This document shows, piece after piece, positions 1 to 16,411 of a DNA stretch of 64,000 nt. Below the pieces are notes generated by a model. That model was not told where the DNA came from and did no database searches. It saw nothing but the letters and a program-made list of their open reading frames with translations. The stretch comes from a bacterium (GTDB lineage: Bacteria > CAIWAD01), in contig JAUIFJ010000003.1 of the NCBI GenBank assembly GCA_030429345.1, positions 1-64,000 of the forward strand, written 5' to 3'. Both the position numbers and the translations under genes were made by a program. Within the stretch, counting starts at the first letter, position 1. Each line of letters begins with the position of its first letter.

Positions 1-1
1 C

Positions 2-88
2 GTTGAGCAGGATGAAGAATGGCGGAGTGAGCGCCGCTACCTCAATCCTGAATTACTTGAAATGCTGTCACTACGGAAGGCCGGTTGA
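2..88 (+). pseudogene. C-terminal tail of an IS256-family (mutator) transposase, cut by the window edge
   Basis: An open frame enters from the left edge and stops at 86-88 (TGA). Its last residues include DEEWRSERRYLNPELLEML. A tryptophan followed by RRYLN-type residues just before the stop is typical of IS256-family transposases. The sequence after the stop also looks like the right end of such an element. Only 28 codons are visible, so whether the element is intact is unknown. The family call is pattern recognition of a short tail. Confidence 0.5.
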
Positions 89-116
89 ATTTGCACACAG
101 TTTTGGACTTGACGCA
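89..116. repeat. Putative right terminal inverted repeat of the IS256-like element
   Basis: Immediately after the transposase stop the sequence reads TTTGCACACAGTTTTGGACT and then enters the lpdA-derived repeat at about 117. IS256-family ends commonly carry a TTTACACA...TTTTGGAC-like terminal sequence close to the transposase stop. The matching left end lies outside the window, so the repeat and any target duplication cannot be confirmed here. Confidence 0.45.
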
Positions 117-304
117 ACATTCAGGAATGCAGCAAAACCCCATTCCCTCTCCTCCGCGCCCTCTGTCTCCTCCGTGCTCGCTGTGCGAGAAGGCTGTTCA
201 AAGAAGCGGCACGCAGCACCTATTTGTGCAAGGGCCGCCCGAGAGCATCCAGGTGCGCCTCCCAGAGCACCTCGCTCATGCTGGGATGGGCATGCACCAT
301 GCGC
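117..304 (-). pseudogene. Relic 1 of the lpdA 3' end plus its downstream region
   Basis: This stretch matches 4545-4730 of the intact lpdA locus and 2203-2386 of relic 2. On the minus strand it still reads RMVHAHPSMSEVLWEAHLD and on to the native C-terminus GRPLHK, with the stop at 220-222. The coding match ends abruptly near 304. It has no start and is clearly a non-functional duplicate. It abuts the IS256-like end at 116, which suggests the insertion truncated an older array unit. From 305 to 468 I see nothing recognisable. Confidence 0.85.
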
Positions 305-468
305 CAAGGTATTGAGCTCTCCTACCAGGTCACATTCGCTGTCGTAAATACCCTGAGGAGTAGTGTCATGACGCCCTGGAGGATCTGACGCCGTGAGAGT
401 ACAAGAAAGTGAAGGCCGGGAGCACTATTTCTGAACTGTCACTCGAATAGGTAAGCTTACGATTCCTG

Positions 469-1980
469 CTAGAACGATTCAGCTAAAATACTCATACCTA
501 GCCGACCATCGTTCATTGTCGCATTTAAATCGGTAGTAAGTAGCCATTGATCTAGGATTGAGCCATATGACCAATCCGTGTCGACACCAAGTTCATCAGA
601 CTCAGCGACAGCTACGGTGTATTCTGCTGTTGGTCCCGTAGAATGGAAGCCTACCCACTTTGAGCTACTAACAGGAATTGCCACTCCTAATGAAGTTAGA
701 TCAAATTCAAGCAAGAAAGTAGTTCTATGTCCAAAGGGGGAGTAGTCGACAGTTCCCCATGGCTGGGGAGTAAGAGTCGAGCCAGCAACGATTAGCTCAT
801 GTGTTCCATTATGGGGATCTGCTTGCGCAGAGGCAAAATCATCATAGACTTTGACTTTAAAGCTAATATTTTGCCAATCGGGATCGTTGAAATTGGGAAA
901 GTCTGAAAAAATAGTGACTCTAAGGGTCTTCAAGGCTAAGGCGCTAGAGCCGTTATTAGTGGCCTCAGCAAAAGCCATTCTCTCGCCAGCAAAATTACCA
1001 CCTGCTGAAATATACCCATTCCAACTCGTATAAGCAGGGTCGCTTGTAATACTATCTCTAAGAGTCACCTCAACCGGCAGAGCAGGCGTATCAATAACCA
1101 AGCCCCCACAAGCATCCACAAGCTGCATGTGGTCATCCCAAGCCCAGTTGGAATCGTTCCCGTCGACACCATCCTGTTCATACACGATTAAAAGCATGGC
1201 ATCCGCTTCAGGACCAAAATCGATCGTCCCGTTTAAATCCATGTAGGATGTAAGAACTTCTCCGCCGATCACTCGACTTTGCGCCTGGGCCAGATCAAGC
1301 CCTTTCGCCACCGCCTTCTCTTCCACATTGTCCCCATGCAGGAACACAATCGCCCGGGAGTCAAAACTTTGGATCACAAGCGAACTGTCCGGGTCCGTGC
1401 AATCCGGATCACAGACCTCCGCCTGGAGGGAGAACTCCGTGCTGTCCGGAACCTGGGACAGGTTCATGCGGCTGGTCGCGCCGAGTGGCAGGTCCAGCAG
1501 GTTTTCTCCGTTGTAGAGCTCCTGGGTGTAGACAGGCTTTTCAGGTTGCATCACGCGACGCAGCCGCACATCGCCGGCTGCAGCGGGGTTCAGCGAGAGC
1601 AGTTCGAGTTCCTGCCCATGAGGATCACAGGCGCATTCGGGGTTGATGTAGACCACGATCCTTGAATCCGAGTAGATCTTCACGAAGTCCGTGGGCACCG
1701 CCTGGGTGGCGCTCCAGGAGCTCTCGTTTCGTGCTACCGTGATGTATTCGCAGTCCTGCTCCGCCACCACCTTGAACAACCTCTGCACCAGGGGCGAGCC
1801 ATCGCCGGGGTCCGTCTCGACACGCAGGATCTGCGAGGCGCTGCGGGGATGGATCCCGTTGAGCGGGTATTTGCCTCCGCCCTCTGCGCTTTCCGCATCA
1901 AAACCGGGAGCAAGCTGCGCCGGCAGGGTGGAGGCCAGCAGCAAAAGGCAGAGAAGGGACCAGGAAAGAAGAGTACGCAC
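469..1980 (-). CDS. Large secreted protein, array copy 1 (variable C-terminal half)
   Basis: About 503 residues starting at a GTG (1980) that begins VRTLLSWSLLCLLLLAS, a signal peptide ending near LPAQ. The ATG used by copy 2 is destroyed here by a two-base insertion (CATCTGAAC against CATGAAC), so GTG or an upstream TTG at 2148 must serve. The first ~225 residues are nearly identical to copy 2. The rest diverges, apart from a shared acidic stretch with WAWDDH and a conserved VTLRDSI segment. The acidic run could bind calcium, which is inference. The C-terminal third is poorer in GC than the neighbours. The family is unknown to me; an extracellular or surface protein is likely. Confidence 0.75.
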   Translation of the reverse strand: MRTLLSWSLLCLLLLASTLPAQLAPGFDAESAEGGGKYPLNGIHPRSASQILRVETDPGDGSPLVQRLFKVVAEQDCEYITVARNESSWSATQAVPTDFVKIYSDSRIVVYINPECACDPHGQELELLSLNPAAAGDVRLRRVMQPEKPVYTQELYNGENLLDLPLGATSRMNLSQVPDSTEFSLQAEVCDPDCTDPDSSLVIQSFDSRAIVFLHGDNVEEKAVAKGLDLAQAQSRVIGGEVLTSYMDLNGTIDFGPEADAMLLIVYEQDGVDGNDSNWAWDDHMQLVDACGGLVIDTPALPVEVTLRDSITSDPAYTSWNGYISAGGNFAGERMAFAEATNNGSSALALKTLRVTIFSDFPNFNDPDWQNISFKVKVYDDFASAQADPHNGTHELIVAGSTLTPQPWGTVDYSPFGHRTTFLLEFDLTSLGVAIPVSSSKWVGFHSTGPTAEYTVAVAESDELGVDTDWSYGSILDQWLLTTDLNATMNDGRLGMSILAESF

Positions 1981-2150
1981 GGAAGTCGGTTCCAGATAGT
2001 TCAGATGTCGGGTTGAGCAGAAGCAGACAAGCAGTCCAGCGCAGGAGTCCGGCTTGCCTGGCCGAAAAAGCGTTTTGCCTTGGGTCGAATCGGAACCTAG
2101 GGCCGGAGGGCTGTTCAAGCAAGAGGAAATCAAAGCTGCCGCAAGCAAAA

Positions 2151-2180
2151 CGGGCCCGCATGCAGATGCATGAGGGCCCG
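2151..2180 (-). terminator. Hairpin terminator copy downstream of the lpdA relic
   Basis: On the minus strand the arms CGGGCCCTCATGC and GCATGCGGGCCCG flank a 4-nt loop and are followed by TTTTGC. A related hairpin at 4497-4526, with changes that keep pairing, follows the real lpdA. This copy was carried along by the duplication. Confidence 0.6.
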
Positions 2181-2297
2181 AAAGCTCTGACCAACATTCA
2201 GGAATGCAGCAAACCCCCCATTCCCTCTTCTCCGCGCCCTCTGTCCCCTCCGCGCTCTCCGTGCGAGAAGGCTGTTTTCAAAAAAGGCCCGAAGCCC

Positions 2298-2445
2298 CTA
2301 TTTGTGCAGCGGCCGCCCGAGAGCATCCAGGTGTGCCTCCCAGAGCACCTCGCTCATGCTGGGATGGGCATGGACCATGCGCGCCACTTCTTCCAGGGTG
2401 CATTCGAGCTGCAGCATGCTGACCGCCTGGGCGATCTGGTCGGTG
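2298..2445 (-). pseudogene. Relic 2 of the lpdA 3' end
   Basis: The minus strand reads DQIAQAVSMLQLECTLEEVA and continues to the native lpdA C-terminus GRPLHK with the stop at 2298-2300. Upstream of codon ~400 of lpdA the match ends, and the frame continues into unrelated sequence. It is a truncated duplicate of 4642-4789 that lacks the FAD, NAD and most of the interface domain. Confidence 0.9.
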
Positions 2446-2828
2446 ATACAAGGTGAAGAGGGGGAAGTCTTCCGTGAGTTCAGAACCCGTACTGGCCTAG
2501 ACCCCTTTTCGGTCTTGAAGGCAGAGGTTTCGATTCCGTTTGGGACTTCTCTTGGAGGGTCAGCTAAAGGGTAAGAGTGGTGGTTGTGGATCGTAGGAAA
2601 GGTTTGAGACAGAGGTCGTGGCAATAGGCTGGGGATTGCTCCAGGGGTAGGAGGTGTATTCTGCGATGCATCAGGAAGATCGGCAGTACCAGATGCTGCC
2701 ACGGAGCAACTCTTCATTTGGAAGCCCCCCGTAAAAGGCAAAATTGGTTGGTATTGTCTGGATACTACGGGTCTTATGGGGCATGACAACAATATCGCTT
2801 TGGGTAATACTTTCTGAATACTAAACCC
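2446..2828. other. Spacer between array units with no recognisable gene
   Basis: About 380 bp lie between the broken end of lpdA relic 2 and the stop of secreted-protein copy 2. The minus-strand frame running through it is only a read-through extension of the relic. It has no start with a ribosome site and no family resemblance. The composition is more mixed than the flanking housekeeping genes. I see no RNA or repeat in it. Confidence 0.5.
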
Positions 2829-4352
2829 TTATTGAACAACAGCATCTACAGTTACCGCTAGACGACCCTCGTGAACATTATCTACATCATTGCTTGTGTA
2901 ATCCCAGCCCTGGTTGTAGTTACCACTCCAATCTGTTTGGATACCGAGTTCGCTGGATTCCATGACACGAAGTGCGCCAAGCTGTGCGCCAGGAGTTTCT
3001 ACTGCAAGGCCAATATACTTGGTTTGTCCCGCTGCTATATCAATCCCTAGTCCAGTTAGATCAAAGATGTACTCGTATGTCGTGAGATTTCCAAATGGAA
3101 ATACAAATACAGTACCAAATGGGGAGCTAGAAGTAGGATTATCGAAAAAGTGTGAAGTGCAATTTGAGCCAATGCAGGTTGGATCAGCCTGCATGTCACC
3201 TTCGCTATCCCAAACCCTGAGGAAATAGTCGTAGGCACTAGGGTTATATATGCTAGTAGCTGGTGAAAGCACTGTCCTCCAGGAAGTCAGCGAAACATTC
3301 TGCGTGGACGCGACAGGGGCAACAGCATTTCCCCAGCCACTTGGACCGCCATTTTGCGTAATCGGATACCGATTATTTCCATCCGTAGTAGAACTATCCT
3401 CCCCAATACTATCTCGAAGCACAACAACCTGCGGCTTCTCATCCGCCACTCCCCCACAAGCTCTCATCTCTTCAATGTGATCATCGAAGGCCCAACCAGC
3501 ATCGTTCCAGTCGGCAGCATCATGTTCGTAGGCGACAATGAGCTTGTACTCTGCATCCTCCCCAAAGTCGATGTTTCCGTCTACATCGATATATGGCGCA
3601 AGCGCCGCCCCGCCGATTGGACGACTTGCTGCGTTAATCGGATCGAGCCCCTTCGCCACAGCCTTTTCTTCCACATTGTCCCCGTGCAGGAACACAATCG
3701 CCCGAGGGTCGAAGCTCTGGATCACAAGCGCGCTGTCCGGAGCCGCGCAATCCGGATCACAGACTTCCGCCTGGATCGAGAATTCCGTGCTGTCCGGGAG
3801 CTGGGCCAGGTTCATAGGGCTGGTCGTGCCAGGTGAGAGGTTCAGCAGGTTTTCCCCGTTGTAGAGCTCCTGGGTGTAGACAGGCTTTTCAGGTTGCACC
3901 ACGCGCCGCAGCCGCACATCGCCGGCTGAAGCGGGAGTCAGCGAGAGCAGTTCGAGTTCCTGCCCATGAGGGTCACAGGCGCATTCGGGGTTGATGTATA
4001 CCACGATCCTCGAATCCGAGTAGATCTTCACGAAGTCCGTGGGCACGGCCTGGGTGGCGCTCCAGGAGCTCTCGTTTCGCGCAACCGTGATGTATTCGCA
4101 GTCCTGCTCCGCCACCACCTTGAACAACCTCTGCACCAGGGGCGAGCCATCGCCGGGGTCCGTCTCGACGCGCAGGATCTGCGAGGCGCTGCGGGGATGG
4201 ATCCCGTTGAGCGGGTATTTGCCTCCGCCCTCTGCGCTTTCCGCATCAAAACCGGGAGCAAGCTGCGCCGGCAGGGTGGAGGCCAGGAGGAGCAGGAAGA
4301 GAAGAGACCAGGAAAGAAGAGTGCGCACGGAAGTCGGTTCCAGATAGTTCAT
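2829..4352 (-). CDS. Large secreted protein, array copy 2 (variable C-terminal half)
   Basis: 507 residues from ATG at 4352 (MNYLEPTS...). A GTG at 4328 (VRTLLSWSLLFLLLLAS) would give a cleaner signal peptide, and neither start has a strong ribosome site. Residues up to about 250 nearly match copy 1, including the cysteine-rich EVCDPDC and NPECACDPHG motifs. After AVAKGLD the two diverge, keeping only the framework DVDGNIDFG...WAFDDH and VVLRDSI. The unique C-terminal part contains one CIGSNC pair. No anchor or sorting signal is evident. An extracellular modular protein with a swapped C-terminal domain is the best description; function unknown. Confidence 0.8.
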   Translation of the reverse strand: MNYLEPTSVRTLLSWSLLFLLLLASTLPAQLAPGFDAESAEGGGKYPLNGIHPRSASQILRVETDPGDGSPLVQRLFKVVAEQDCEYITVARNESSWSATQAVPTDFVKIYSDSRIVVYINPECACDPHGQELELLSLTPASAGDVRLRRVVQPEKPVYTQELYNGENLLNLSPGTTSPMNLAQLPDSTEFSIQAEVCDPDCAAPDSALVIQSFDPRAIVFLHGDNVEEKAVAKGLDPINAASRPIGGAALAPYIDVDGNIDFGEDAEYKLIVAYEHDAADWNDAGWAFDDHIEEMRACGGVADEKPQVVVLRDSIGEDSSTTDGNNRYPITQNGGPSGWGNAVAPVASTQNVSLTSWRTVLSPATSIYNPSAYDYFLRVWDSEGDMQADPTCIGSNCTSHFFDNPTSSSPFGTVFVFPFGNLTTYEYIFDLTGLGIDIAAGQTKYIGLAVETPGAQLGALRVMESSELGIQTDWSGNYNQGWDYTSNDVDNVHEGRLAVTVDAVVQ

Positions 4353-4789
4353 GTCGGGTTGAGCAGAAGCAGACAGGCAATCCAGCGCAGGAGTCCAGTT
4401 TGCCTGGCCGAAAAAGCGTTTTGCCTTGGGTCGGATCGGAACCTAGGGCCGGCGGGCTGTTCAAGCAAGAGGAAATCAAAGCCGCCGCAAGCAAAACAGG
4501 CCCACATGCGGAAGCATGAGGACCCGATTTCTCTAATCTGATTCAGGAATGCAGCAAAACCCCATTCCCTCTTCTCCGCGCCCTCTGTCCCCTCCGCGCT
4601 CTCCGTGCGAGAAGGCTGTTCACGGAAGAGGCACGAATCGCCTATTTATGCAGCGGCCTACCGAGAGCATCCAGGTGCGCCTCCCAGAGCACCTCGCTCA
4701 TGCTGGGATGGGCGTGGACCATGCGGGCCACCTCTTCCAGGGTGCATTCCAGCTGGAGCATGCTGACCGCCTGGGCGATCTGGTCGGTG
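3645..4789. repeat. Array unit, copy 2: conserved gene 5' half, upstream region and native lpdA tail
   Basis: Partner of the repeat at 1300-2445. Here the right end is the genuine 3' end of lpdA, so this is the donor or ancestral position. Gene starts, hairpin and lpdA tail stay in the same order and spacing in both copies. Confidence 0.85.
4497..4526 (-). terminator. Terminator of the pyruvate dehydrogenase operon
   Basis: On the minus strand CGGGTCCTCATGC and GCATGTGGGCCTG form a stem with two G-T wobbles, followed by TTTTGC. It lies ~115 bp after the lpdA stop. The copy at 2151-2180 differs at paired positions while keeping the fold, which supports a real structure. Confidence 0.6.
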
Positions 4790-5991
4790 GCGTTGGGCGC
4801 GACGATGTGCACGCCGACGATTTCCCCGTAGGGTTCCTCGGCGAGCACCTTGATAAAGCCCTCGGCGGCACCGCCGGCCAGGGCGCGACCGTTGGCGGAC
4901 AGGGGGAACTCGCCCTTGCGGTATTCGGCGCCGCGGGCCTGCAGGCTCTCTTCGCTTTCGCCGACGCTGGCGATTTCGGGGTCGGTATAGATGTTGAGCG
5001 GAATGCGGGACATGTCGACGGGCTCGCCCTGGCCGGCCATGTGTTCCACGGCGGCCATGCCCATGGTCATCGCGATCTGGGCCAGGCGCTGGCCGGTGCC
5101 GTCGCCGGCGGCGTATACGCCGGGCAGGCTGGTGCGGCAGTGCTCGTCCACCTTCAGGGCCTTGCCCTTCAAATCCGGCTGCGCGCCTTCGAAGACGGGC
5201 AGCACCGGCACGCGGCGGGCGCAGTTGAGCACCGTGTGACAGGCGGAGTCGGCTCCGTCCACGCGCAGCGTTTCGCCGGCCTCGGCCAGCTGTTTCACGT
5301 TCTTGTGGATGGTGACCTTCATCTTCTTCAGGCGCCGGGCGAGGAAGGTCCCCAGGCTGCCGTCCAGCTCCGGCAAGAGCGTATCTCCCGGCAGGGCCAG
5401 CTCGACGGGAATGCCGATGCCCGCCAACAGCAGCAGGGTCTCGGCGGCGACGATGCCGTCGCCGTATACAAGCGCGCTGGCCGGAGGATTCTGAAGGCCG
5501 AAGAAGGCCTTCATGTCCACCACCCGCCCGGCGGAAAGCTCGCGGAAGGGTTCCGTGGCCGGACGGCTGCCCGTGGCGACCAGGATGTTGTCGGCGGACA
5601 CTTCCAGGTCACCGATCGTGACACGCCCGGGCCCCGTGATCCGCGCCTCGCCGCCCAGCTGTTCCACGCCGTTCTTCTTCAGCAGGAAACCCACGCCCTT
5701 GACCAGCTTGGTGACGATGCCGTCCTTGCGCTTCAGCGCCTTGGCCCAGTTGAAGGAGAGGGCCTTGGGGTCGACCCCGTCGATGCCGTAGCTGCCGGCC
5801 TTCTTCAGGCGCTCGAAGAGGCGCGCGCTCTCGATCATGCTCTTGGAGGGAATGCAGCCCCAGTTGAGACACATGCCGCCGATGGCGTCCTTCTCGACGA
5901 TGGCGGTCTTCAGGCCCAGCTGCCCGGCGCGGATCGCGGCCACGTAGCCCGCGGGTCCGGCGCCGATGATGAGGCATTGGTAGTGGTTCAT
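4642..5991 (-). CDS. lpdA: Dihydrolipoamide dehydrogenase (E3)
   Basis: 449 residues. It reoxidises dihydrolipoamide on E2 and passes electrons through FAD to NAD. An N-terminal FAD-binding GAGPAGYVAAI is followed by the redox disulfide CLNWGC (Cys41, Cys46) in an IGGMCLNWGCIPS context. The second FAD motif, VYAAGDG, precedes the dimer-interface domain with the active-site HAHPSMSE near the C-terminus. The NAD-binding segment is less canonical (VYGDGIVAAE). ATG at 5991 is preceded by AAGGA. It is the last gene of the operon, 11 bp after the E2 gene. Its 3' end has been copied twice to the left of the operon. Confidence 0.95.
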   Translation of the reverse strand: MNHYQCLIIGAGPAGYVAAIRAGQLGLKTAIVEKDAIGGMCLNWGCIPSKSMIESARLFERLKKAGSYGIDGVDPKALSFNWAKALKRKDGIVTKLVKGVGFLLKKNGVEQLGGEARITGPGRVTIGDLEVSADNILVATGSRPATEPFRELSAGRVVDMKAFFGLQNPPASALVYGDGIVAAETLLLLAGIGIPVELALPGDTLLPELDGSLGTFLARRLKKMKVTIHKNVKQLAEAGETLRVDGADSACHTVLNCARRVPVLPVFEGAQPDLKGKALKVDEHCRTSLPGVYAAGDGTGQRLAQIAMTMGMAAVEHMAGQGEPVDMSRIPLNIYTDPEIASVGESEESLQARGAEYRKGEFPLSANGRALAGGAAEGFIKVLAEEPYGEIVGVHIVAPNATDQIAQAVSMLQLECTLEEVARMVHAHPSMSEVLWEAHLDALGRPLHK

Positions 5992-13646: not shown

Positions 13647-14233
13647 ATTCCCTTCTCCCGGTAGCGCCGCGGGTCCGTATACACCGGTTCCCGCAGCAGG
13701 TGCAGGCGCCGCCCTTCGCGGCGCAGTCGATCGACGAGCCACAGGTCCTCCAGGTAGGGCCAGGGCGGAAAGCCGCCCAGCTGCTCCAGCGTGGAGGCGC
13801 GCACCGCCAGGGCCTGGTCGCCGTAGGGGCGGCGCCGCAGGCGGCTGCGCCAGTTCCCCCCCCAGGCCACAAGGGCCATTGCCCAGCCGCCCTTCTCGTA
13901 GGCCAGGCGGAAGGCGCTGGCCTCGACCTCCGGGCGGGAAAAGGCCCGGCGCAGCAGTTCCGGCGCGCGCTGGGGCGGCCTCGTGTCCGCGTGCAGCATC
14001 CAGAGGATCTCGCCCCGCGCCTCGCGGCGCGCCGCCTCCAGCTGCAGCCCGCGCCCCTTCGGCGACTGGATCACGCGCCAGCCCGCTCTTTCGGCAAGCT
14101 CCGGGCTTCCGTCGCGGCTGCCGCCGTCGGCGAGCAGGATCTCCTCCAGCCCTTGCATCTGCTCCAACCGCGGCCGAAGGCGTTCGAGCGCGGCGCGCTC
14201 GTTCAGCAGGGGGATCAGCAGGCTGATCTTCAT
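13568..14233 (-). CDS. TIGR04283-type glycosyltransferase of the arsenosugar cluster
   Basis: 221 residues beginning MKISLLIPLLNERAALERL. A GT2 fold with EILLADGGSRDGSPELA, the metal site LWMLHADTRPP and AVRASTLEQLGGFPPWPYLED defines the small family that accompanies ArsS. Start and upstream stop overlap by four bases (ATGA). The 3' end overlaps the DUF547 gene by 79 bp. It is predicted to build the glycosyl part of an arsenosugar or to act on a lipid-linked form; this is context-based. Confidence 0.87.
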   Translation of the reverse strand: MKISLLIPLLNERAALERLRPRLEQMQGLEEILLADGGSRDGSPELAERAGWRVIQSPKGRGLQLEAARREARGEILWMLHADTRPPQRAPELLRRAFSRPEVEASAFRLAYEKGGWAMALVAWGGNWRSRLRRRPYGDQALAVRASTLEQLGGFPPWPYLEDLWLVDRLRREGRRLHLLREPVYTDPRRYREKGIWNTLLAHQRIVGHFDRHGSPPAWSR

Positions 14234-15726
14234 CCGCGACGGATCCAGGCCCGCAGCAGGCGGGCGATTCCCGGCTTGAGGCGTGCGCGCATCCACTGGT
14301 CTCCCGCTCGGCGGAAGGCTTCCCCCAGGGTCGGGTAGGGCAGCACCAGGCCGGAAAGCCGCGAGAGTTTCTCCTTCCGTGAGACAAGAAGCGCCGCCGC
14401 CGCCAGCAGCTCGCCGGCGTGATCGGCGACGATGCGCAGGCCTCGCACGCGCCCCTTGCCGTCGTGGATCACCTTCAGGTAGCCCTGCCCCCGGTCGAGG
14501 ATCGCGCGGTCCAGGCCATCGAAGGGGATCCGGATCTCTCCCGCCTTCCGGTCCCGGCGGCGCAGCTCGCCCAGCCCGGCGCCGATGCCGGCCGCTTCCG
14601 GCTGGGTATAGGTGCACCAGGGGATCGGCAGGCGGCGGTGATCCACTCGCCCCCCGAAGAAGGCGTTGCGCACCACGGCGCGGGCCATGGCGTCGCCGGC
14701 ATGGGTGAACTGGGGTCCGCCGACCACGTCCCCGATGGCGTATACACGGCGATTGCTGCTGCGCATGCGGGCGTCGACGAGGATTTCCCCCCGCTGGCCG
14801 AGTTCGACGGCTCCCGCCGGGCAGTCCAGCGCTTCCGTGTTCGGCCGGCGGCCGACGGCCAGCAGCAGGCCGTCCGCCCGCCAGGAGTCGGTTTCGCCCG
14901 CCTGCTCCAGTTCGGCCCGGCAGCCCTCCTCGCCCGTGATCCAGGCGCGCAGGGTGCATGCCAGCCGCAGTTCCACGCCGTCGGCGCGCAGCTGCCGCTG
15001 CAGAATGCCGGCCGCCTCCTCCTCGTCGCGCGGCAGCAGGCGGTCGCCGGCCTCGACCAGGCAGACCGTGCTGCCCAGCCGGGCCGCGGCCTGGGCCAGT
15101 TCGCAGCCGATCGGGCCGCCCCCCAGCACGAGCAGGCGGCGCGGCAGGTCCTCCAGGGTGAAGAAGCTGTCGCTGGTGTATACAGTCGGCTGCTCCAGTC
15201 CGGGAATCCGCGGCACGACCGGCCGCGCCCCGCTCGCCAGGAAGGCCCGACGAAAGTCCAGCAGCGCCTCCCCGACGGCGAATCGGCTCTCCCCCGCGAA
15301 GCGCGCGCTGCCGAAGTATACATCGACCCCCTTGGCCCGCAGGCCGGCGGCGCTGTCATGCGGGGCGATTTTCGCCCGCAGGCGCCGCATCTGCTCGAGT
15401 GCCGCTTGGGCGTCCGGCAGGCCGGGACCGTCATCGTCCTTCCAGTGGGCTCGGCGCGCCGTCGCGACCTGCCTGGCAGCATGCAGCAGGCCCTTGGATG
15501 GCACACAGCCCGTGTTGAGGCAATCCCCGCCGAGGAGCCCTTTCTCGACGAGGGCCGTGCGCGCTCCCAGCCCTGCGCAGATCGAGGCGCAGACCAGGCC
15601 CGCGGAACCGCCGCCGATGATCACGGCGTCATAGGAGCCGCCGGGCGGGTTCTGCCAGTCCGCCGGGCGGACCTCCTTGAGCAGGCTCTCGTCGTGGGCA
15701 TCCAGGGGCCCGAAGACCTCAGCCAT
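14230..15726 (-). CDS. MerA-like FAD-dependent pyridine nucleotide-disulfide oxidoreductase
   Basis: 498 residues. An FAD-binding IIGGGSAGLVCASICAGLG is followed by the redox pair in GGDCLNTGCVPSKG (Cys69, Cys74), an NAD(P) motif LVLGGGPIGCELAQAA, and VYAIGDVVGG. It lacks the N-terminal metal-binding domain of MerA and has no vicinal Cys pair at the C-terminus, so mercury reduction is unlikely. It overlaps the membrane-protein gene by 8 bp and the GT gene by 4 bp. A redox role in arsenosugar metabolism is inferred from this pairing, which recurs next to arsS in many genomes. Confidence 0.88.
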   Translation of the reverse strand: MAEVFGPLDAHDESLLKEVRPADWQNPPGGSYDAVIIGGGSAGLVCASICAGLGARTALVEKGLLGGDCLNTGCVPSKGLLHAARQVATARRAHWKDDDGPGLPDAQAALEQMRRLRAKIAPHDSAAGLRAKGVDVYFGSARFAGESRFAVGEALLDFRRAFLASGARPVVPRIPGLEQPTVYTSDSFFTLEDLPRRLLVLGGGPIGCELAQAAARLGSTVCLVEAGDRLLPRDEEEAAGILQRQLRADGVELRLACTLRAWITGEEGCRAELEQAGETDSWRADGLLLAVGRRPNTEALDCPAGAVELGQRGEILVDARMRSSNRRVYAIGDVVGGPQFTHAGDAMARAVVRNAFFGGRVDHRRLPIPWCTYTQPEAAGIGAGLGELRRRDRKAGEIRIPFDGLDRAILDRGQGYLKVIHDGKGRVRGLRIVADHAGELLAAAALLVSRKEKLSRLSGLVLPYPTLGEAFRRAGDQWMRARLKPGIARLLRAWIRRG

Positions 15727-16411
15727 GGGCGGCCTCCCCCTCGAAGCCCTTGTCGGCGAGCGCCCTGCGCGCCATCTTCGTGATACGCACGGTGACGAGC
15801 ACGGTCACTCCGAGACCGAGCCAGAAGAACCAGCGCTGCAGCCCCTCCCCCCCGGAAGGCTGCTCGCCCAGCTGGCGCAGGCTGCCGACCAGGGAACCGA
15901 TGTATACATAGAGCACGGTCGCCGGCAGCATGCCGATCCAGGAAGCGGCGACATAGCGGCCCAGGGGAGCCGCGCTCAGGCTGTAGAGGTAGTTCAGCAG
16001 GTTGAAGGGAAAGACCGGCGAAAGCCGCGTCAGCAGGATAATCTGGAAGGCCTGGCCCGCCAGGGCGCGGTCCAGGGCGGCCACCTTGCCGGAGGCCTGC
16101 AGGCGCTCTTCGACCCAGTCCCGCGCCAGGTAGCGTCCGGTGAGGAAGGCCGCGGTCGCTCCCAGGGTGCTGGCGACGGAGACCAGCGCCGTGCCGAGCA
16201 GCGGGCCCCAGATCACGCCCGCGCCCAGGGTCAGCAGCAGGCCCGGCACCAGCAGCACGGTCGCCCCCACATAGAGGGCGATGAAGACCCCCCAGCCCAG
16301 GGCGCCCCGGGCCTCGATCCAGCCCATGGCCGCCACGATCGGGTCCCCCCCCGTCCGGAAGGCCAGCAGCAGGACGATTCCCAGCAGGACCAGCCCGATC
16401 CCCTTCTTCAT
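15719..16411 (-). CDS. TVP38/TMEM64 (VTT/DedA-like) membrane protein
   Basis: 230 residues from ATG with GGGAG upstream (MKKGIGLVLLGIVLLLAF). Several hydrophobic segments surround a VTT-domain core: GLLLTLGAGVIWGPLLGTAL, ATAAFLTGRYLARD and RLSPVFPFNLLNYLYSL. Such proteins may flip lipids or export small solutes. It is the first gene of the arsenosugar cluster and overlaps the flavoprotein gene by 8 bp, a standing partnership in this type of cluster. An ATG ten codons upstream is possible but has a poorer context. Confidence 0.85.
   Translation of the reverse strand: MKKGIGLVLLGIVLLLAFRTGGDPIVAAMGWIEARGALGWGVFIALYVGATVLLVPGLLLTLGAGVIWGPLLGTALVSVASTLGATAAFLTGRYLARDWVEERLQASGKVAALDRALAGQAFQIILLTRLSPVFPFNLLNYLYSLSAAPLGRYVAASWIGMLPATVLYVYIGSLVGSLRQLGEQPSGGEGLQRWFFWLGLGVTVLVTVRITKMARRALADKGFEGEAAHG

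What the first reader, a model, noticed from the sequence alone, without database searches (positions are those of the whole stretch)
469..4789. Tandem array of secreted-protein genes with fixed 5' halves and swapped 3' halves, dragging copies of the lpdA tail
Seen: two secreted-protein genes share ~1.15 kb (5' half, upstream hairpin, last 49 codons of lpdA) almost identically, then diverge completely in the 3' half. A third lpdA-tail relic lies at 117-304. Inference: unit duplication anchored in lpdA together with replacement of C-terminal cassettes, a layout that could generate antigenic or adhesive diversity. More units may lie left of the window.
Basis: partly seen in the sequence, partly recalled or inferred. 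Interest (0 to 1): 0.72.

Follow-up and report, generated by a model that had tools for sequence, protein, structure and literature searches.

The report
Stacked secreted-protein genes with lpdA tails
Next to a central-metabolism gene (lpdA), an uncultured bacterium has stacked three versions of one secreted-protein gene, each with a similar front half and a different back half and each separated by a leftover copy of the end of lpdA; the leftovers changed almost only in ways that keep the protein intact, which suggests whole versions were imported from related strains rather than copied at home.

Summary
The array crosses the contig ends. Both ends of contig C9 abut one Mutator-type (IS256-like) insertion sequence sharing an 8-bp target duplication, and relatives have lpdA next to hflK, which in this genome lies at the far contig end. 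From lpdA, the order is gene A, lpdA tail, gene B, lpdA tail, IS, gene C, lpdA tail, CopG/BrnT toxin-antitoxin, short lpdA scrap, DUF4143 ATPase, lpdA terminator, kinase, hflK. Corrections: the 3' halves of A and B are homologous (31% identity); only C's looks unrelated. Identity falls gradually and the 5' halves are recombination mosaics, so they are neither 'fixed' nor sharply swapped. All 3' halves are AT-rich (44-49% GC against 64%). Most telling, lpdA relics differ from lpdA almost only synonymously (relic-private changes 13 synonymous, 2 non-synonymous; P about 3e-6), so they diverged while functional. Best reading: serial import and stacking of diverged alleles anchored on the lpdA 3' end, then recombination among units. 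This is a displacement array of the rhs/mafB/T6SS kind, but anchored in a housekeeping gene and keeping whole genes. Protein function is unknown; no homologue was found in any collection searched.

The parts
1..114 (+). Right (3') end of a multi-copy Mutator/IS256-type insertion sequence; its left end is the last ~130 bp of the same contig (C9:186499-186628)
   Evidence: 7 other right ends and 11 other near-identical left ends in the genome; all 8 right ends pair uniquely with a left end by 8-bp target duplication, C9's two ends with each other (CAACATTC); a related full copy hits Transposase_mut, E=1e-115
115..306 (-). lpdA-tail relic R2 (28 codons to stop, plus post-lpdA spacer up to the IS target site); belongs to the unit of gene C beyond the IS
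   Evidence: 7 differences from lpdA, all synonymous
469..2004 (-). Gene B, secreted-protein gene, ~511 codons open; the ATG used in A and C is destroyed by a 2-bp insertion, an in-frame GTG 8 codons on could start it
469..1284 (-). AT-rich variable 3' half of gene B (46% GC)
   Evidence: homologous to 3' half of A at 31% identity
2136..2190 (-). Hairpin with T-run, terminator-like, in the B unit
   Evidence: fold -28.9 kcal/mol, z -4.0
2191..2456 (-). lpdA-tail relic R1 (49 codons) plus post-lpdA spacer
   Evidence: 9 differences from lpdA, all synonymous
2829..4352 (-). Gene A, secreted-protein gene, 507 codons, intact
2829..3632 (-). AT-rich variable 3' half of gene A (49% GC)
4480..4535 (-). 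Hairpin with T-run, present terminator of the lpdA operon, head of the A unit
   Evidence: fold -23.1 kcal/mol, z -2.1
4642..5991 (-). lpdA (dihydrolipoamide dehydrogenase, E3); its last 49 codons and downstream spacer are the repeated anchor
   Evidence: Pyr_redox_2 and Pyr_redox_dim; relatives have lpdA followed by hflK

Best explanation
The 3' end of lpdA is an anchor at which incoming DNA from related lineages has repeatedly been added. Each arrival consisted of a diverged but functional lpdA 3' end (about 49 codons), the lpdA terminator and a downstream gene. Recombination in the lpdA region kept lpdA whole and pushed the previous lpdA end, with its own downstream gene, away from lpdA. 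Three arrivals carried alleles of one secreted-protein gene (A, B, C) with similar 5' halves and different AT-rich 3' halves; older arrivals carried a CopG/BrnT toxin-antitoxin pair and a DUF4143 ATPase. After stacking (or before, in the donors), homologous recombination among the 5' halves made them mosaics. Shown: order and continuity of the array, almost purely synonymous divergence of relics, mosaic 5' halves, foreign-like composition of the 3' halves, empty lpdA-hflK junction in relatives. Inferred: import from relatives, order of events. Not resolved: whether entry used a single crossover with a circle (as proposed for rhs), one-sided homology with an illegitimate join, or a lost site-specific recombinase. 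Likely use, inferred only: keeping several variants of an exported protein whose C-terminal domain faces a variable partner.
For: Continuity: 8-bp TSD pairing and lpdA-hflK synteny in two relatives. Accretion: lpdA-derived pieces separate the cargos, generally shorter with distance from lpdA. Import: R1 9S/0N, R2 7S/0N, R3 9S/2N, R4 4S/0N against lpdA; relic-private changes 13S/2N when 28% synonymous is expected, P=3.4e-6; hairpins keep their fold in all units. Recombination: A=B at 63 of 72 informative sites over +72..+485, then 15 consecutive sites with B=C; 0 of 300 shuffles as extreme. Foreign 3' halves: 44-49% GC against 60-61% in the 5' halves and 64% in the window. N-half under purifying selection: dN/dS about 0.2.
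Against: No donor has been seen: the gene is absent from 97 other genomes searched, from genome contigs, viral contigs, plasmids (gene A) and phages (gene C). No strains of the species were available, so import is inferred from the substitution pattern only, on 31 relic codon differences. The region just upstream of each relic junction is unrelated between units, so the joining mechanism is not identified. The lpdA tail R3 has two amino-acid changes.
Confidence: 0.66

Rival explanations
1. In-genome tandem duplication of an lpdA-tail-plus-gene unit by unequal crossing over, followed by divergence of the 3' halves while gene conversion kept the 5' halves alike.
For: Head-to-tail units of about 2.35 kb; mosaic and conversion-like patches in the 5' halves; graded fall of identity.
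Against: Relic lpdA tails, which would be free of constraint, show 13 synonymous to 2 non-synonymous private changes; the 3' halves share a low GC unlike the genome; C's 3' half is not detectably homologous to A's or B's.
Confidence: 0.17
2. Site-specific integration: small elements used the lpdA 3' end as attachment site, each restoring the gene with its own version of the 3' end; recombinase genes have been lost.
For: Replacement 3' ends with synonymous changes are what such elements carry (general knowledge, e.g. elements entering the 3' ends of tRNA or protein genes); relics R1 and R3 begin within about 5 bp of each other at lpdA codon ~400; unrelated cargos including toxin-antitoxin genes.
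Against: No integrase or recombinase ORF seen in the array; relics R2 and R4 start elsewhere; units carry a single gene each.
Confidence: 0.12
3. Rhs/CDI-like polymorphic toxin locus: the variable 3' halves are toxin tips with immunity genes downstream.
For: Conserved GC-rich 5' part and AT-rich variable 3' part in an array, as described for rhs (PMC2935791).
Against: No downstream immunity-sized gene in the 165 bp and 136 bp after B and C; A and B 3' halves are full-length homologues of one domain rather than unrelated tips; no toxin, Rhs, filamentous haemagglutinin or secretion-system family matches.
Confidence: 0.05

Closest known systems
rhs loci with C-terminal displacement (Jackson et al. 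2009, PMC2935791)
   Same: GC-rich constant 5' part, AT-rich variable 3' part, older versions shunted downstream, single crossover of an imported unit proposed
   Different: Here complete genes with their own 5' ends are kept, the anchor reaches back into the housekeeping gene lpdA, no immunity genes and no sequence relation to Rhs
Vibrio cholerae T6SS effector-immunity arrays by sequential displacement (Kirchberger et al. 2017, PMC5361080)
   Same: Successive imports at the 3' side of a conserved gene leave ordered remnants of earlier states; homology-facilitated illegitimate recombination proposed
   Different: No T6SS genes or immunity genes; the remnants are lpdA tails plus intact secreted-protein genes
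mafB loci of Neisseria (as described in PMC2935791)
   Same: Full gene followed by low-GC alternative C-terminal pieces flanked by conserved DNA
   Different: maf pieces are silent fragments; here each unit is an open full-length gene; no sequence relation shown
Integrative elements using 3' ends of protein genes (e.g. e14 at icd; general knowledge)
   Same: Incoming DNA replaces the 3' end of a core gene and leaves the old end downstream
   Different: No recombinase found, no defined attachment core shown

Membership tests
C-terminal displacement arrays (rhs/mafB type, as a kind of locus) | constant 5' part and variable 3' part in serial copies | tested here: met
   A and B variable parts are still homologous
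C-terminal displacement arrays (rhs/mafB type, as a kind of locus) | GC-rich core and AT-rich variable part | tested here: met
   60-61% vs 44-49% GC
C-terminal displacement arrays (rhs/mafB type, as a kind of locus) | displaced copies are promoterless fragments of the core plus tip | tested here: not met
   B and C keep ~510-codon open frames and the whole upstream region
C-terminal displacement arrays (rhs/mafB type, as a kind of locus) | strains share displaced tips in different positions | not testable with these tools
   no other genome of the species found
Polymorphic toxin systems | immunity gene directly downstream of each variable part | tested here: not met
   136-165 bp without gene-sized ORF after B and C; 373 bp after A holds only an unsupported ORF running into the lpdA relic
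Polymorphic toxin systems | recognisable toxin or trafficking domains | tested here: not met
   no Pfam, NCBIfam or PHROG family at meaningful E-value
Site-specific integrative elements at a gene 3' end | replacement 3' end keeps the target protein sequence | tested here: met
Site-specific integrative elements at a gene 3' end | recombinase encoded in the element | tested here: not met
   none among ORFs of the array; could have been lost
Mutator/IS256-type insertion sequence (at contig ends) | transposase family and 8-bp target duplication | tested here: met
   (family match on a 73%-identical relative in the same genome)

The most novel reading that the evidence does not exclude
The 3' end of an essential metabolic gene serves as a general docking place at which this lineage stacks whole alleles of an exported protein with exchanged C-terminal domains, using only homology to lpdA and its terminator, so that the row of synonymous lpdA tails is a dated record of imports.
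Probability: 0.35. Interest if true: 0.6.

Novelty: new variant of a known kind. Interest (0 to 1): 0.47.

Why it matters
The lpdA relics give a simple test that is seldom available: because they once coded for a conserved enzyme, their substitutions tell whether array units were copied at home or imported. Here they point to import, and the locus links displacement arrays known from toxin genes to an unrelated secreted protein family in a little-sampled lineage.

Tried and rejected
Donor cassettes in the genome and four relatives: none. Homologues in genome contigs, viral contigs, plasmids, phages: none. Naming the lineage through lpdA in genome contigs: nothing returned. Structure prediction of the full protein and of the A/B 3' half: pLDDT 33 and 41, too poor for a fold search, which I therefore did not run. 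PDB by sequence: only chance-level matches. PADLOC scan failed on a coordinate error and was not repeated. Assembly artefact inside the window: considered and judged unlikely, since the longest exact match between units is 116 bp. Plasmid nature of C9: no ParA-type motif, three tRNAs, left open. An interspersed 43-bp repeat inside the spacer explains most of the other genome-wide hits and is not part of the array mechanism as far as shown.

Full report
What was checked. The window is contig C9:1-64000 of a 4.24 Mb, 92-contig genome; the closest other genomes held are three of another genus of the same family and one of another family of the class. All features below lie on the minus strand unless noted, reading away from lpdA. 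The two genes are open over 507 and about 511 codons.

The array is longer and crosses the contig ends. Further copies lie only at the other end of the same contig (C9:181984-186483). That end finishes in the left end of an insertion sequence, and window bases 1-114 are its right end. The genome holds eight right ends, and each pairs with exactly one left end through a shared 8-bp flank (for example C13/C50 CTACGAAG, C60/C36 GGCAGGAA); the two ends of C9 pair with each other by CAACATTC. The joined flanks restore the sequence seen undisturbed at 2188-2205. A related full copy in the genome encodes a Mutator-family transposase, a family known for 8-9-bp target duplications (general knowledge). 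Independently, relatives G001 and G003 have lpdA followed within about 180 bp by hflK, hflC, a methyltransferase and a pseudouridine synthase (these names are read by eye from the translations); in this genome those genes lie at the far end of C9. So the array stands between lpdA and hflK.

Order from lpdA: gene A (2829-4352), lpdA tail R1, gene B (469-2004), lpdA tail R2 split by the IS, gene C (L024:16761-18308), lpdA tail R3, CopG-antitoxin/BrnT-toxin pair (L024 about 15627-16194), short lpdA scrap R4, DUF4143 ATPase on the other strand (L024:14056-15387), lpdA spacer and terminator R5, hybrid sensor kinase, hflK. Each of units A, B and C, and the junction next to the kinase, has a terminator-like hairpin (fold energies -23 to -29 kcal/mol, z -2.1 to -4.0).

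The genes. A and B are alike at 96-100% nucleotide identity over codons 26-125, then fall steadily to about 35% at codon 326. Their 3' halves are still homologues (31% identity over 200 aa, E=1e-18), while C's 3' half matches neither. The 5' halves have 60-61% GC, the 3' halves 44-49%, the window 64%; GC at third positions falls from 0.6-0.9 to 0.2-0.5 in all three. dN/dS in the 5' halves is about 0.2. Informative sites switch from A=B (63 of 72 sites, +72..+485 from the start codon) to fifteen consecutive B=C sites, more clustered than any of 300 shuffles: the 5' halves are mosaics made by recombination. No protein family, solved structure or homologue was found, and models were too poor to use. 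A signal peptide is inferred by eye from the N-terminal hydrophobic stretch. Gene B has lost the ATG used in A and C by a 2-bp insertion, but an in-frame GTG eight codons on would still give a signal peptide.

The lpdA relics decide between models. A copy made at home and left behind would collect amino-acid changes freely. Instead, R1 differs from lpdA by 9 synonymous and 0 non-synonymous changes, R2 by 7 and 0, R3 by 9 and 2, R4 by 4 and 0. Counting only states private to single relics gives 13 to 2, where about 28% synonymous is expected (P=3.4e-6). The relics therefore diverged while they were ends of working lpdA genes, that is, in separate lineages. Rough synonymous divergence in the tails is of the same order as in the 5' halves of the attached genes (A/B about 0.2, A/C about 0.47), as expected if lpdA end and gene travelled together.

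Mechanism. I conclude that diverged versions of 'lpdA end, terminator, downstream gene' were imported and stacked at lpdA, each pushing the previous one outward, with recombination among 5' halves. Jackson et al. 2009 proposed for rhs a single crossover with a circle that displaces the older tip downstream (PMC2935791), and Kirchberger et al. 2017 describe sequential displacement in V. cholerae T6SS clusters, perhaps by homology-facilitated illegitimate recombination (PMC5361080). Either could apply here, as could a lost integrase; relics R1 and R3 start within about 5 bp of each other, R2 and R4 elsewhere, which does not decide. It works like a displacement array, but I do not file it with rhs or polymorphic toxins: immunity genes and toxin domains were looked for and not found.

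Limits. No second genome of the species is at hand, so variation between strains, donors and use could not be tested. The relic test rests on 31 codon differences from lpdA (27 of them in R1-R3). That C9 closes on itself while carrying three tRNAs and no ParA-type motif is unexplained and may mean an internal misjoin elsewhere in C9; it does not affect the lpdA-hflK junction, which synteny supports.

Noticed in passing
window 1-114 and L024:18499-18628 (C9:186499-186628): Contig C9 (186.6 kb) closes on itself through one insertion sequence and through lpdA-hflK synteny, yet carries three tRNA genes and no ParA-type motif; circular replicon, tandem duplication or internal misjoin is unresolved.
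   Followed up: partly
window 4569-4611 and ~40 places genome-wide: A 43-bp interspersed repeat (rich in CGCGGAG/ACGGAG) sits in the post-lpdA spacer and occurs about 40 times in the genome, sometimes as closely spaced inverted pairs.
   Followed up: partly
L024:15627-16194 and 14056-15387 (C9:183627-184194 and 182056-183387): A CopG/BrnT toxin-antitoxin pair and a DUF4143 AAA ATPase are also flanked by lpdA-derived pieces, so the insertion site takes cargos other than the secreted genes.
   Followed up: partly
window about 2001-2004: Gene B carries a 2-bp insertion that destroys the ATG used by A and C; an in-frame GTG could replace it.
   Followed up: partly
L047:585-1556 (contig C77): A tyrosine-recombinase-like ORF lies directly beside a diverged copy of the insertion sequence.
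   Followed up: no
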